This document shows positions 46,053-52,576 of a stretch of 64,000 nt of DNA, one piece after another; position 1 is the first letter of the stretch, and every line of letters begins with the position of its first letter. This stretch comes from Pseudomonadota bacterium (GTDB lineage: Bacteria; Pseudomonadota; Alphaproteobacteria; Acetobacterales; Acetobacteraceae): positions 1 to 64,000 of the forward strand of contig JAJZFA010000024.1 in assembly GCA_021805565.1 (NCBI GenBank). Direction: 5' to 3'. The translations under genes and the position numbers were made by a program. The notes under the pieces were generated by a model. The model saw nothing but the letters and a program-made list of their open reading frames with translations, was not told where the DNA came from and did no database searches.

Positions 46053-49000
46053 TTACCGGAAATCCCTTGCCGGTATCTTGATTCCCCTATCACGAACAAG
46101 CCGAGGGTCCGGAACGCTGCCCGACCGACCCTCGTCGCCACGTCCATACGGCAAGGGAAAGGCCTCGCCGCGTTCGCCTACGCCGCGCAGCAGATCGGAC
46201 AGATCGGTCAGATATCCGGCGATGACGTGAATCACCTCCCCCTCGCGCTGTAATTTGCCCCGGCAGGCGATCATGCTGGCGGACAGTACCAGCCGCCGTT
46301 GCTTTGCAAAAACCGACGGCCACAGGATCAGGTTGGCATGGCCGGTTTCATCCTCGATCGTCACGAACAACACACCGCGCGCGCTGCCGGGGCGCTGGCG
46401 CACCAGAATAATACCCGCCACCTCCACAATTTTGCCATCGCGGATCGTGGGCAGATCGGCACTGCGCACCATGCCGCGCGCGGTCAGGTCCGGCCGCAGA
46501 AAGCCGACGGGATGGCGGCGCAGACTGAGGCCGGTGCTGCGATAATCTTCCACCACCTGCCGCCCGGCCGTCATCTCCGCCAGGGCCACGGCCGGTTCGG
46601 CGTCCGGTTCGGCCGGCACTGTGTCGAACAGCGGCAACCGCGTATCCGAAAGGCCTCGGATCGCCCACAGTGCCTGTCGCCGGTCCAGCCCCAACGTCAG
46701 GAACGCATCCGCTTCCGCCAGTTTTTCCAGCGCCGCGACCGGCACGCGCAGCCGGCGCCACATATCCTCGACCGAGCGATACAACGTGCCGCGGCGAGCG
46801 ATTAAATCTTCCGCATGATTCGCGGCCAGTCCTTTGACCATGCGCAACCCAAGCCGCACGGCACGCCCTTCCAGCGTGCAATCCCATACGGACTCGTTCA
46901 CCGAAACCGGCCGGATTTCCACCCCGTGCAGGGCGGCATCCCGCACGATTTGCGCCGGGGCGTAGAACCCCATCGGCTGCGCGTTCAACAGCGCGCAGCA
47001 GAACACATCGGGGTGGTGGCATTTCATCCACGCCGAGGCGTACGCAATCAGCGCGAAACTCGCTGCGTGGCTCTCGGGAAAGCCGTAACTGCCGAATCCT
47101 TCGATTTGCGAGAACGTTTTATCGGCGAATTCTTCCGTGTAGCCGCGTCCGGTCATTCCCGCGATCAGCTTCTCCTTGAAACGCGAAACCCCGCCGGTAA
47201 ACTTGAACGTCGCCATGCTGCGGCGCAGCGCGTCGGCCTCCGACGGCGTGAAGCCGGCACAGACGATCGCGATTTGCATCGCCTGTTCCTGAAACAGCGG
47301 CACGCCCAGGGTTTTTTCCAGGACGCGGCGCAATTCCGGCGTGGGATAATCGACTGTTTCCAAACCCTCCCGCCGCCGCAGATACGGATGCACCATATCG
47401 CCCTGGATCGGTCCCGGCCGGACGATCGCCACCTGAATAACGATATCGTAAAACGTGCGCGGTTTCAGCCTTGGCAGCATCGACATTTGCGCGCGCGATT
47501 CGATCTGGAACGTGCCCAGCGTGTCGGCCTTGCGGATCATCGCGTAGGTGGCCGGATCTTCCGCCGGAATCGTCGCCAGATCCAGGCGCCGGCCCTTGTG
47601 TTCGGCCAGCAGATCGAACGCCCGCCGCATACAGCCCAGCATGCCCAGGCCCAGCACATCGACTTTCATGAACCGCAGCGTATCGATGTCGTCCTTGTCC
47701 CATTCGATCGTCTGGCGGTTTTCCATGCTGGCCGGTTCGATCGGCACCAGATCGTCCAGCCGTTCCTCGGTCAGTACGAATCCGCCGGGATGCTGCGACA
47801 TATGCCGGGGAAAGCCGATCAGCGCCCGGGCCAGATCGAGCGTCAGGCGCAACCGGCGGTCTTGCAAGTTGAAGTTCAGTTCGGCGGCGTGTTCCTCGGC
47901 AACGCCATCCTCGCTCCAGCTCCAGACCTGCGACGCCAGCGCGCCGGTCACGTCGTCCGTCAGGCCCAGTGCCTTGCCGACATCGCGAACCGCGCCGCGG
48001 CCGCGATACCGGATAATCGTCGCGCATAGCGCCGCCCGGTTTCGCCCATAGGTGTTATAAATCCACTGAATGACCTCCTCCCGCCGCTCATGCTCGAAAT
48101 CCACGTCGATATCGGGGGGTTCCTTACGGGCCGCGCTAATGAAACGTTCGAACAGCAGATCGCCGCGTTCGGGGTCGATGGACGTAATTCCCAGCACGAA
48201 ACAAACCGCCGAGTTCGCCGCCGACCCGCGTCCCTGGCACAGAATACCCCGTGAGCGGGCAAACCGGACGATACTGTTAACCGTCAGGAAATACGGCGCG
48301 TATTCCAGTTCGCCGATCAAATCGAGTTCATGACGAAGCTGCCGGGAGACGCGGCCGGGAACACCGCTGGGATATCGCGCGTCCGCGCCCGCGGAAACCG
48401 ATTTTTCCAGTGTTTGCTGTGCCGTCAGGCCCGGCACGCGGACCTCGTGCGGATATTGATAGCGGAGTTCGTCCAGGCTGAACCGGCAACGGCCGGCGAT
48501 TTCCTGCGTGCGGGCGATCGCGTCGGGATGGCGGGCGAACAGCCGAACCATTTCTTCGGAAGACTGGAGATATCGCACCGTGGACCGTTCCCGCCGGTTG
48601 CCGAGTTCGTCGATGGTGCGGCCTTCGCGGATGCATGTCAGCACATCCTGCAAAATACGGCGGCCAGGCGCGTGGTACAGCACATCGTTGGTGACAACCG
48701 CCGGCACCCCCAGCCGGCGCGCGGTATCGGCGATGGTTTGCAACCGCACCGCATCGTTGGGCCGGTGCATCGATGTCAGCGCCACATACGCCCGGTTTCC
48801 GAAATCCGCTTTCAAACGCCGGATATTGTCCTCGGTAGGGACGGAACAGAGAATGCCGACCGAACCTTCCGCGGCGGCCGCGAGATCGGGCCAGTACAGT
48901 TCGCATTTACCCTTGCCGGCGCGCCCTTTGCCGGTTGTCAGCAACCGGGTCAGCCGGGAATACGCGGGCCGGTCCTCCGGGTACACCAGAACCGACACCC

Positions 49001-49217
49001 CATCCGCCAGATCCAGCCTGCATCCCACGATCGGCCTGAGGCCGGCCAGACGAACCTGCTTATGCGCCCGCACAATGCCGGCCAGCGAATTCCGGTCGGT
49101 AATCCCCAGCGCCTTCATGCCCAGAACAGCCGCGCGCTCGGCCAGTTCCTCGATATGCGAGGCGCCGCGCAGGAAGCTGTAATTCGTGGTGACCTGAAGT
49201 TCGGTGTAAGCGTCCAT
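46053..49217 (-). CDS. dnaE2: error-prone DNA polymerase III alpha subunit DnaE2 (ImuC)
   Basis: [49 protein letters not shown]; 1054 aa; downstream of imuB; ends IKIPARDFR. Confidence 0.97.
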
Positions 49218-49222
49218 GCTGG

Positions 49223-50707
49223 TCAGAAAACCCCGTGCAGAAACCAGCGCATGTCGCCGGTATCCGCGTCGCTGCCGTTGCCGCGCCGGAACAGCCAGAA
49301 GCGGCGGCCGTCCTCATCCTCGACCCGGAAATAATCGCGCACCGAGGTCCATTCCCGGTCGCGCTTCCACCATTCCCCGGCGATCCGTTCGGGTCCGTCG
49401 GCATGACGCACCCGGTGACGCACCCGCCGCCAGGTGAACGCGGCCGGTGGCCGGTCCGGCAGCAGCGCCATCGCCTCGATCGGCTGCGGCGGATTCAGCA
49501 GCCGCACCGGCCGCGGCCAATCCGCCGGCCAGTCGCCGCCGGTACCGGACAGCGGCGACACCCGGCGTTCCGATCGTTCCGGCACATCGCTTTCCACCGG
49601 CGCGATGCGATAAATCCGGGTTTCGCCCAGCCGGTTCGTCAGCCGGTCCACCAGCGACGCAAGGCCAGGGGGGGCGTCCTGCGTCAACGGCGACGCGATC
49701 TGCGTAAAACCGGCCTGTTCGGCGCGCGCGACAATCAGGCGCATCGCTTCCACTCCCGGACCGGGATCGACCTGGTCCAGCCGTTCATCCAGCATTCGTC
49801 CCAGATGCCGGACGTCGCGCACTGGCCGGACGGTGCCGATGCGGATGGCCTGTACCGACCCATCCACCCGTTCGAACAGCAGGTCCAGCCGGCGCGCGCC
49901 CAGTCCGGCTTGCTCCAAATCGCCGCAAACCGTGCCGGTCAGCCGGACGATGACGGTGGAAAAAGCCTCCGCTGTCAGCAGCGGTTCCACGAAGGTCAGC
50001 CTGGCCTGAATCAGCGTTCGCGGCACCGCCGGCACGATCGGTTCGGGTACCCGCCCCGCCGCCTGATCCAGCCGCAGCGCCACGATCGTGCCGAACCGCC
50101 GCACCAACGGCGACCGGGGGGCGGCGGCCAGCGGCCCAACGCGTTCGAACCCCATCAGCCGCAGGCCCGCCAGCACACCGGCCGGCAAGCGCAACGCCTC
50201 GATGGGGAAATCCGCCATCGCGTCCGCACCGGCCGGCACCGAACCGCCGCCGCCGAACCGGGCGACCGCGTGGGCGACGGCGGGGGTGTCGGCGGCGGCG
50301 GCATGGGCTGTCCAGCCCAGATCGTTCAACCGGGAAACCAGATCGCGCAGCAGCCGGACTTCCCCGCCCCGCAGATGCGCGCTGCCGGTAACGTCGATCC
50401 ACAGTCCGTCCGGCGGATCGGCCGCCGTCAGCGGCGCGTAGCGCAGGCACCATTCCGCCAAACGGCTCAGCGCCGCCGCATCGCCCGCCGGGTCGGCGTC
50501 ATGCACCGAAAGCCCGGGCACCAGGACCTGTGCCTGAGCCAGTTTCATACCCGGCCGCAGGCCCAATCCGGCCGCCGCGGCATCCACCGCCATGACCGTC
50601 CGGCCCGCCACCACGATCCGCGGACCGGCGTCTTCCCGGGGGGATTCAGGCTGCCTGAGCCGATCGGTCGGAAACGCCGGAAACCAGACCGAGACGACCC
50701 GTCGCAT
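49223..50707 (-). CDS. imuB: Y-family DNA polymerase-like ImuB
   Basis: [19 protein letters not shown]...; C-terminus [22 protein letters not shown]...MRWFLHGVF; between imuA and dnaE2. Confidence 0.94.
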
Positions 50708-51458
50708 CGCAAGCCTCCACTACCCAGGATCCCGGTTCGCCGCCACGGCATCGTGTCAGGTCCAGCCGCCAGCGGGCCCGTCCGAGACCCGGTGTATCCG
50801 GCGCGTGCGCCAAGGCCGGCGGCGAGGGCAGCGCCGCGATCCGCCAGCGCGTTACGGCCGCTGTCGGCTCATGCAGCGCCGGATCGTCGAAGCAGGGGCT
50901 GCGGCGGATCAAAATTGCCAGAATGCCGGATTGTTCCGCCGCCAGTTGCAGGCGGCGCGACGCGACCAGGCTGAGCCGGCCGGTGTGTTCGGCCACCACG
51001 GCGGTCAGGCCGGCATGGCGGAAACCTTCCTCCATAACCGCCAGCACATCCTTGCCGGCCTCGGCGAACACGATCCGGTCCGGCGTCAGCCCCGCGCAGG
51101 CAAGGCCGGGGGCGAACAGATCGGCCTGCCGCAGCACCCAAAAAATGGGACCGCCGGTCCGGGCCAGGATGCCGGCGACAAACAAAGTGGCGGCGGCGGC
51201 GTGTTCTGTATCCGGCCCGGCGGAGACGGCTTCATGCAGCGCCCCCAGGCGGATGCCACCGGTGGGCAGCGCCCGATCGATTGCCCCGATTCCCAGGGGA
51301 AACGAGCGTTCCGCCGAGCCTTTTGCGTGCATACGCTCGATCTGGACGATACGCTCCCGCAGTAAGGCGATAGACCGCGAGCGGGTGGCCGGCGGCGGTT
51401 CGGGTATGGCGGATCGTGCGGAGCCAGGCTTGTCCGGAATGGCGAGGGAAGTGAACAT
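50646..51458 (-). CDS. imuA: ImuA (SulA/RecA-like) mutasome protein
   Basis: SFPLGIGAIDRALPTGGIRLGALHEAVSAGPDTEHAAAATLFVAGIL; overlaps imuB. Start ATG 51458 preferred; upstream in-frame ATG at 51509 possible. Confidence 0.92.
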   Translation of the reverse strand: MFTSLAIPDKPGSARSAIPEPPPATRSRSIALLRERIVQIERMHAKGSAERSFPLGIGAIDRALPTGGIRLGALHEAVSAGPDTEHAAAATLFVAGILARTGGPIFWVLRQADLFAPGLACAGLTPDRIVFAEAGKDVLAVMEEGFRHAGLTAVVAEHTGRLSLVASRRLQLAAEQSGILAILIRRSPCFDDPALHEPTAAVTRWRIAALPSPPALAHAPDTPGLGRARWRLDLTRCRGGEPGSWVVEACDATGRLGLVSGVSDRSAQAA

Positions 51459-51467
51459 AAAGCGAAC
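51453..51467 (-). promoter_or_regulatory. putative LexA (SOS) box, alphaproteobacterial GTTC-N7-GTTC
   Basis: GTTCGCTTTATGTTC on - strand (GAACATAAAGCGAAC on +), directly at the 5' end of imuA. Confidence 0.8.
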
Positions 51468-51575
51468 ATAAGGCCAGGACGATACCCGAGTCGAGTCCTT
51501 CGTTACCATTTCTATCGCCGACGGTATCGCCGCTACCGCTCCGCTTTTTTGCCTTGGCTGGCTTTGAGTTGCTTG

Positions 51576-52316
51576 CTAGCGGTGGCCGCCGCCGCCGCCA
51601 TGACCGCCGCCTCCGCCGTGGCCCATGCCACCGCCACGGCCCGCGACACCGCCACGGCCATAACCGCCGTAGCCACCCCGGCCCCAGCGGCCATAACCGC
51701 CGTACCCACCCCGGCCCCAACGGCCATAACCGCCGTATCCGCCCCAGCCGCCGTAACCGAAAGCGCCGAATCCCAGGCCCACGCCGTAAAAACCGTCGTA
51801 AAACGGATAACCATAACCGTAACCATAGCCGTAAGGGTATGGATACGGATAAGCAGCCACAGCATAGGACCCATCATAGCCGGTGCCGGTAAAACCATAT
51901 CCCGGATCATAATCGCCCGTGGACGCCATTTGCACGGAGTCGCCGCGCGCCGCCATGCACTGCACGTAATTCAGGCCAGCCGGCGTGCCGGCATCCGCGG
52001 GAACCGCAAGGCCGGCCGCATTAGGCGATTGTCCAGCTTCGTTGGCCCCCGGCGCGATACCGGGGTTGTAAAGCGCATCCAGATCGTCGGGTGTCTGTGC
52101 ATTGGCCACCGCCTTGGGCGCCTCCGCGAGAGGAGCGCTGCCGTACCCGCCAGGGGAAGCCGCGCTTTGCTGACAAAACGCCTGATCCGCCTGAAACGCT
52201 GCCATATCCTTGCCAGGCCCGGGAACCACCATGACACCGGACATCGGCGACGATCCAGCACAAGCCCCAAGTGTCAGGCATGCACCGAGAGACGCAAGCG
52301 TACGGGCGAAATTCAT
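51576..52316 (-). CDS. putative lipoprotein with Gly/Tyr/His-rich C-terminal tail
   Basis: MNFARTLASLGACLTLGACAGS lipobox; C-terminal GGYGRWGRGGYGGYGRWGRGGYGGYGRGG...GHGGGGGHGGGGGHR. Confidence 0.8.
   Translation of the reverse strand: MNFARTLASLGACLTLGACAGSSPMSGVMVVPGPGKDMAAFQADQAFCQQSAASPGGYGSAPLAEAPKAVANAQTPDDLDALYNPGIAPGANEAGQSPNAAGLAVPADAGTPAGLNYVQCMAARGDSVQMASTGDYDPGYGFTGTGYDGSYAVAAYPYPYPYGYGYGYGYPFYDGFYGVGLGFGAFGYGGWGGYGGYGRWGRGGYGGYGRWGRGGYGGYGRGGVAGRGGGMGHGGGGGHGGGGGHR
51657..51755. repeat. 33-nt in-frame tandem repeat within the lipoprotein gene
   Basis: About three units of CCATAACCGCCGTA(G/C/T)CC(A/G)CCCC(G/A)GCC(CCA(G/A)CGG) on + strand, i.e. 11-aa GRWGRGGYGGY-like units. Confidence 0.8.
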
Positions 52317-52576
52317 CACCGATCCTCCCTGCAAACGGCACATCCGAGCGTGCGGTATGCATACAACAATTGATCTCGGTCAGCGGGGAAGCACGTCAAG
52401 GCCTTCCTCCCCTACATTTCCAAATGCAAATAAATATGATGATCGCGTTCCGCCATGCCCGATACCCCCCTCGCCGGGACGGGTGCGGGCTGGCAGAATA
52501 CGAGCGGTGTGCATGATGGCTTCGGACTCGCGCGTCCCGACGCTACGCTGCACCCGGTTTTCAGAAGGAGCACGAT

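What the first reader, a model, noticed from the sequence alone, without database searches (positions are those of the whole stretch)
51453..51467. LexA-type box spans the putative imuA start codon
GTTCGCTTTATGTTC fits the alphaproteobacterial LexA consensus GTTC-N7-GTTC, and its internal ATG is the most plausible imuA start. The operator would then overlap the translation start, implying a leaderless or very short leader mRNA, or a start at the upstream in-frame ATG 51509 with the box inside the coding region. No downstream ATG exists before MHAKG. LexA control of imuA-imuB-dnaE2 is established in Caulobacter; this geometry is the unusual part.
Basis: partly seen in the sequence, partly recalled or inferred. 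Interest (0 to 1): 0.6.

Follow-up and report, generated by a model that had tools for sequence, protein, structure and literature searches.

The report
imuA start codon inside LexA operator
In the bacterial genus Rhodopila, the start codon of the first gene of a DNA-damage mutagenesis operon lies inside the DNA site where the damage-response repressor LexA should bind, so one short sequence appears to serve as promoter part, repressor site and start of translation, in all 30 genomes where it could be read.

Summary
GTTCGCTTTATGTTC lies at 51453-51467 (-), and its internal ATG (51456-51458) is in frame with ImuA of an imuA-imuB-dnaE2 cassette. One box alone is within chance for this window. 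The genus is not: in 30 of 30 Rhodopila imuA loci with a readable N-terminus, the box ATG (GTG once) is in frame with the ImuA core. Twenty different extension lengths (11-64 codons) contain no stop. In 23 of 30, no start codon lies between the box and the upstream stop. Codon periodicity begins directly after the box ATG. The 51509 start is private to this species.

Two further elements appear. TAtGTT at -12..-7 overlaps half-site 1 and fits a -10 element for transcription starting at the A of ATG (leaderless mRNA). A near-invariant GACTCGACTC at about -39 (28/30) holds two abutting GANTC sites (the CcrM motif) in the -35 region; gcrA and ccrM-type genes are present. In other Acetobacteraceae genera the same promoter core carries the box one half-site (11 bp) upstream, and ATG follows a leader.

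Most likely, LexA occludes promoter and start codon together, and derepression yields a leaderless mRNA. This is a new variant of LexA-controlled imuABC. Transcript start, LexA binding and GcrA involvement are inferred.

The parts
51453..51467 (-). LexA-type operator GTTCGCTTTATGTTC (GTTC-N7-GTTC); half-site 1 at 51464-51467, half-site 2 at 51453-51456
   Evidence: conserved in 30/30 congeners; the same box type lies upstream of lexA in 28/28 congener loci examined
51456..51458 (-). imuA start codon ATG, inside the operator; its G is the first base of half-site 2, and the rest of that half-site is codon 2, TTC (Phe)
   Evidence: in frame in 30/30 congeners, GTG in one (L076); no upstream start in 23/30; codon periodicity begins here
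51465..51470 (-). Probable -10 element TATGTT (-12..-7), overlapping half-site 1
   Evidence: T-12 20/27, A-11 23/27, T-10 24/27, T-7 27/27; 4/6 to consensus; not found by the stricter scan
51489..51494 (-). Probable -35 element TCGACT, 18 nt before the -10
   Evidence: position and conservation; 4/6 to TTGACA
51488..51497 (-). GACTCGACTC: two abutting GANTC (CcrM-type) sites; the reverse strand reads CGAGTCG, the published GcrA motif YGAKTCG
   Evidence: at -38 to -40 in 28/30 congeners; only 4 copies in the whole genome; tandem GANTC paired with a LexA box in 29/32 congener genomes, 0 in the reversed control
50646..51458 (-). imuA coding sequence, 270 aa from the in-box ATG (MFTSLAIPDKP...)
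49223..50707 (-). imuB (IMS + DUF6504), overlapping the imuA end by 62 bp
46053..49217 (-). dnaE2 / imuC error-prone polymerase
   Evidence: NF004225, 1383.6 bits
51507..51509 (-). Upstream in-frame ATG considered as alternative start; rejected
   Evidence: not conserved in any congener

Best explanation
A LexA operator, a sigma-70-type promoter and the imuA start codon are superimposed. In undamaged cells LexA sits on both GTTC half-sites, the first on the -10 element and the second on positions +3 to +6 of the gene, and so blocks RNA polymerase. When RecA filaments make LexA cleave itself, polymerase starts at or within a few bases of the A of the in-box ATG and makes a leaderless (or nearly leaderless) imuA-imuB-dnaE2 mRNA. 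[quoted passage not shown] The tandem GANTC at the -35 is part of this promoter and may let GcrA/CcrM modulate it. Shown: sequence, frame, conservation, start codon by comparative evidence, shared promoter core. Inferred: LexA binding, transcription start, leaderless translation, any GcrA role.
For: Box ATG in frame in 30/30 congeners with 20 different extension lengths, all multiples of three and stop-free; 23/30 have no upstream start, 8/30 no other start at all. One congener replaces ATG by GTG, which is still a start codon. Third codon positions vary 0.52 against 0.17/0.12 directly downstream of the ATG, with no such periodicity upstream. ImuA of the genus forms one clade (99/93) in which every row with a readable N-terminus has this geometry. 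lexA is present and its own promoter carries a GAACCAACATAGAAC-type box in 28/28 congener loci, so GTTC-N7-GTTC is the genus LexA box. TATGTT at -12..-7 and GACTCGACTC at about -39 are conserved while the sequence between them drifts. No Shine-Dalgarno lies at a usable distance before the ATG in any of the 30: 29 have none and the one GGAGG, in L073, ends about 15 nt upstream. In other genera GACTCGACTC lies 30 nt before the half-site that overlaps the -10, the same distance as here, but the partner half-site is 11 bp upstream and ATG follows 34-50 nt after the box start, often with a Shine-Dalgarno. Leaderless mRNAs are common in alphaproteobacteria: 375 in Caulobacter (PMC4117421).
Against: No transcript, footprint or N-terminal peptide data. 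The -10 and -35 each match only 4/6 and a stricter scan finds no promoter. TAT before the first half-site could partly reflect LexA preference, although lexA and recA boxes do not keep it. A leader of a few bases cannot be told from none. In seven congeners, including this species, an upstream in-frame start exists.
Confidence: 0.75

Rival explanations
1. Translation starts at ATG 51507-51509 and the LexA box is simply inside the coding region, with transcription from further upstream.
For: In this species the frame is open from 51509.
Against: Absent in all congeners; many have an in-frame stop 12-60 nt before the box ATG. The upstream sequence shows no codon periodicity.
Confidence: 0.04
2. 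The mRNA starts downstream of the in-box ATG, as would follow if the second TATGTT were the -10, and ImuA starts at a non-canonical codon such as CTG or ATT near the conserved LRERI core.
For: In other genera the promoter-overlapping half-site is the downstream one; similarity to distant ImuA begins only at about residue 33.
Against: ATG/GTG kept in 30/30, all extensions in frame and stop-free, and codon constraint begins at the ATG. GACTCGACTC spacing puts the -10 on half-site 1 here.
Confidence: 0.05
3. Very short but real leader: transcription starts a few nt upstream of the ATG, within the operator, and the mRNA is translated without a Shine-Dalgarno. Otherwise the mechanism is as in the best explanation.
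For: The position of GACTCGACTC relative to the ATG varies by 1-2 nt among congeners (-38 to -40); start-site choice at promoters is usually flexible by a few bases (general knowledge).
Against: The TATGTT-to-ATG distance is invariant at 6 nt because the operator fixes it, which fits a start at the A.
Confidence: 0.15
4. The box is a chance match and the gene is not LexA-controlled.
For: In the window alone 3 matches against 1.75 expected.
Against: Conserved in 30/30 congeners across diverged flanks, and imuA promoters of other genera carry the same box type.
Confidence: 0.01

Closest known systems
LexA-controlled imuA-imuB-dnaE2 (imuABC) cassette of Caulobacter and other alphaproteobacteria
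   Same: Same gene order, same GTTC-N7-GTTC box type at the imuA promoter; Brucella imuABC induction falls on lexA overexpression (PMC6813329)
   Different: Here the second half-site contains part of the start codon; in related genera the box start lies 34-50 nt upstream of ATG
Leaderless mRNAs of alphaproteobacteria (Caulobacter, PMC4117421)
   Same: ATG at or next to the predicted 5' end, no usable Shine-Dalgarno
   Different: 5' end not mapped here; the start codon is also part of a repressor half-site
GcrA/CcrM promoters of Caulobacter (e.g. mipZ with two juxtaposed GAnTC sites, PMC3667746; motif YGAKTCG, PMC7987155)
   Same: Two abutting GANTC sites at the -35 of a sigma-70-type promoter; CGAGTCG on the reverse strand; gcrA and ccrM-type genes present
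   Different: Combined with a LexA operator; no binding or methylation data; imuA was flagged for conserved GANTC only in Caulobacterales, with no regulatory effect seen (PMC7987155)
Mycobacterium tuberculosis lexA, translated from a start codon at the transcription start (PMC2897130)
   Same: SOS gene whose start codon coincides with the transcription start
   Different: Shown there by experiment; the passages read describe no overlap of SOS box and start codon

Membership tests
LexA-regulated SOS gene (alphaproteobacterial type) | GTTC-N7-GTTC direct repeat at the promoter | tested here: met
LexA-regulated SOS gene (alphaproteobacterial type) | lexA gene in the genome with the same box type at its own promoter | tested here: met
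   own genome C24:116402-116416
LexA-regulated SOS gene (alphaproteobacterial type) | LexA binding and induction by DNA damage | not testable with these tools
   no expression or binding data
imuA-imuB-dnaE2 mutagenesis cassette | Three adjacent genes ImuA, ImuB (Y-family), DnaE2 | tested here: met
   the ImuA hit is below the NCBIfam cut-off
imuA-imuB-dnaE2 mutagenesis cassette | ImuB lacks the Y-family catalytic residues | not tested
   active-site residues of ImuB were not examined
[quoted passage not shown]
   -10-like TATGTT 6 nt before ATG and no usable Shine-Dalgarno; 5' end not mapped
GcrA/CcrM-regulated promoter | GANTC at the promoter, matching YGAKTCG | tested here: met
   motif from PMC7987155
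GcrA/CcrM-regulated promoter | gcrA and ccrM-type genes in the genome | tested here: met
   PF07750 in 30/32, PF18755 (RAMA) in 28/32 congeners, both in own genome
GcrA/CcrM-regulated promoter | Methylation-dependent GcrA binding and activation | not testable with these tools
   no methylome, binding or expression data

The most novel reading that the evidence does not exclude
The imuABC mutasome promoter of Acetobacteraceae is a two-input module: LexA represses it, and the tandem GANTC makes its activity depend on CcrM methylation through GcrA, so that damage-induced mutagenesis is gated by replication or the cell cycle. In Rhodopila and at least one other genus the module has slid by one half-site so that the operator also supplies the start codon, and it can move as a unit, for instance in front of imuB in two sister species.
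Probability: 0.3. Interest if true: 0.75.

Novelty: new variant of a known kind. Interest (0 to 1): 0.55.

Why it matters
If true, a 15-18 bp stretch carries three functions (promoter -10, repressor operator, start of translation), and selection on the operator fixes the first two residues of a mutagenesis protein. It gives a clean comparative case of an operator sliding by one helical turn along a promoter and turning a leadered gene into a leaderless one. The conserved tandem GANTC makes it testable whether damage-induced mutagenesis in alphaproteobacteria is tied to replication-dependent methylation. Gene callers may misplace imuA starts in this group.

Tried and rejected
The generic promoter scan found nothing. 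Pfam gave no hit for this ImuA. The other three GACTCGACTC copies in the genome are not next to recognisable SOS genes. The chance-box and 51509-start readings were tested and rejected. A simple in-frame classification also labels L043, L047, L090 and L181 as start-in-box; L043 has a stop just after the box, L181 has the upstream spacing and L047 and L090 have another start nearby, so these are not counted. A Pfam scan of small proteins behind similar modules failed on wrong coordinates and was not repeated. Paper searches for a LexA operator over a leaderless start found no earlier report in the held open-access library, which lacks most subscription papers.

Full report
Setting. The window is from an Acetobacteraceae genome; the nearest named relative at this locus is a Rhodopila MAG (L089), and the genus group held has 33 genomes. 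The genus name is inferred from that relative, which falls inside the group on the ImuA tree. On the - strand lie imuA, imuB and dnaE2.

Observation. GTTCGCTTTATGTTC is at 51453-51467 (-) and contains an ATG in frame with ImuA. The window alone would give 1.75 such boxes by chance and has 3, so the box by itself proves nothing.

Conservation of the geometry. ImuA was found in 31 of 33 genus genomes. In all 30 loci with a readable N-terminus the same box sits at the start, with ATG (once GTG, L076) as bases 10-12 of the box and in frame with the conserved LRxxIARIE core. The distance from ATG to core takes 20 different values from 11 to 64 codons, always without a stop. In 23 there is no ATG, GTG or TTG between the box and the upstream stop, and in 8 there is no alternative start on either side. 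Among ten close congeners, codon positions 1, 2 and 3 downstream of ATG TTC differ at 0.17, 0.12 and 0.52 of comparisons, while upstream sequence has no periodicity. Translation therefore most likely starts at the in-box ATG; the 51509 ATG is private to this species.

LexA. lexA is present over the cut-off in 28 of 32 congeners, including this genome, and all 28 lexA loci examined carry a GAACCAACATAGAAC-type box at ordinary promoter distance. recA loci mostly carry boxes too, though recA of this genome has no perfect one. Neither lexA nor recA has the start-codon geometry.

Promoter. Aligned on the box, two further blocks are conserved in otherwise drifting sequence: TAtGTT at -12..-7, and GACTCGACTC at -38 to -40 (28 of 30). 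They fit a sigma-70-type promoter (TCGACT, 17-19 nt, TATGTT) with transcription starting at the A of ATG. Both hexamers are weak and a stricter scan misses them. No Shine-Dalgarno lies at a usable distance from the ATG in any of the 30 loci: 29 have none, and the single GGAGG, in L073, ends about 15 nt upstream of the ATG.

Origin. Searching 398 Acetobacteraceae genomes for GACTCGACTC followed within 3-30 nt by GTTC-N7-GTTC gave one match in each of 36 genomes and none for the reversed pattern. Not all matches precede imuA. At imuA the spacing falls into two main classes: 9 nt in other genera, where imuA starts 34-50 nt after the box start, often behind a Shine-Dalgarno, and 19-21 nt in Rhodopila. 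The half-site that covers the -10 is about 30 nt from GACTCGACTC in both; the second half-site is 11 bp upstream in one class and 11 bp downstream in the other. The operator has in effect slid by one half-site. A distant genus (L167-L169, L171) has the in-box start with spacing 19 or 23. On an ImuA tree the Rhodopila rows form one clade. In two sister species (G141, G143) imuA has lost GACTCGACTC while imuB has gained the whole module, again with the box ATG in frame ([39 protein letters not shown]).

GANTC. GACTCGACTC is two abutting GANTC sites, the CcrM motif, and on the reverse strand gives CGAGTCG, the extended GcrA motif YGAKTCG (PMC7987155). gcrA and a ccrM-type RAMA gene are present in 30/32 and 28/32 congeners. 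The Caulobacter mipZ promoter has two juxtaposed GAnTC sites, and mutating its GAnTC sites cripples it (PMC3667746). imuA was flagged in Caulobacterales for conserved GANTC, without a regulatory effect in Brevundimonas (PMC7987155). In Rhodopila the middle base is always C/G, so the constraint exceeds bare GANTC and could instead be the -35 plus an unknown activator. A GcrA role is a hypothesis.

Mechanism. LexA over the -10 and the start codon excludes polymerase; cleavage of LexA frees the promoter; a leaderless or nearly leaderless mRNA beginning AUGUUC is made. Sequence, frame, conservation and start codon are shown; binding, start of transcription and translation mode are inferred. Leaderless translation is ordinary in Caulobacter (PMC4117421).

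Verdict. The finding is real and conserved, its first interpretation is supported, and the geometry is a new variant of LexA-controlled imuABC.

Noticed in passing
window 50646-50707: imuA and imuB overlap by 62 bp; imuB starts at the conserved [10 protein letters not shown].
   Followed up: no
L195, L212 (G141, G143): A complete GACTCGACTC plus LexA-box module sits in front of imuB, with the box ATG in frame with ImuB, while imuA there has lost GACTCGACTC.
   Followed up: partly
L173, L174, L186, L187: In other Acetobacteraceae the same GANTC-GANTC plus LexA-box module precedes a small, about 70 aa protein (MQQGALFPEP...), a candidate uncharacterised SOS gene.
   Followed up: partly
L172, L175: The module also occurs in what looks like the recA upstream region in two genomes.
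   Followed up: no
L051, L056, L095: In other genera a box of the opposite orientation (GAACAAAATAAGAAC or similar) abuts the imuA ATG directly, with TTGAC and a CAAAAT-like hexamer placed for a start at that ATG, suggesting a second route to a leaderless imuA.
   Followed up: partly
L219 (G000:C16:61189-61203): GTTCTATTTATGTTC with ordinary leader and G-rich Shine-Dalgarno-like stretch precedes a 249 aa protein ([20 protein letters not shown]...), a likely further SOS gene of this genome.
   Followed up: partly
window 51576-52343: Upstream gene encodes a lipoprotein-like protein with a long Gly/Tyr-rich repetitive tail.
   Followed up: no
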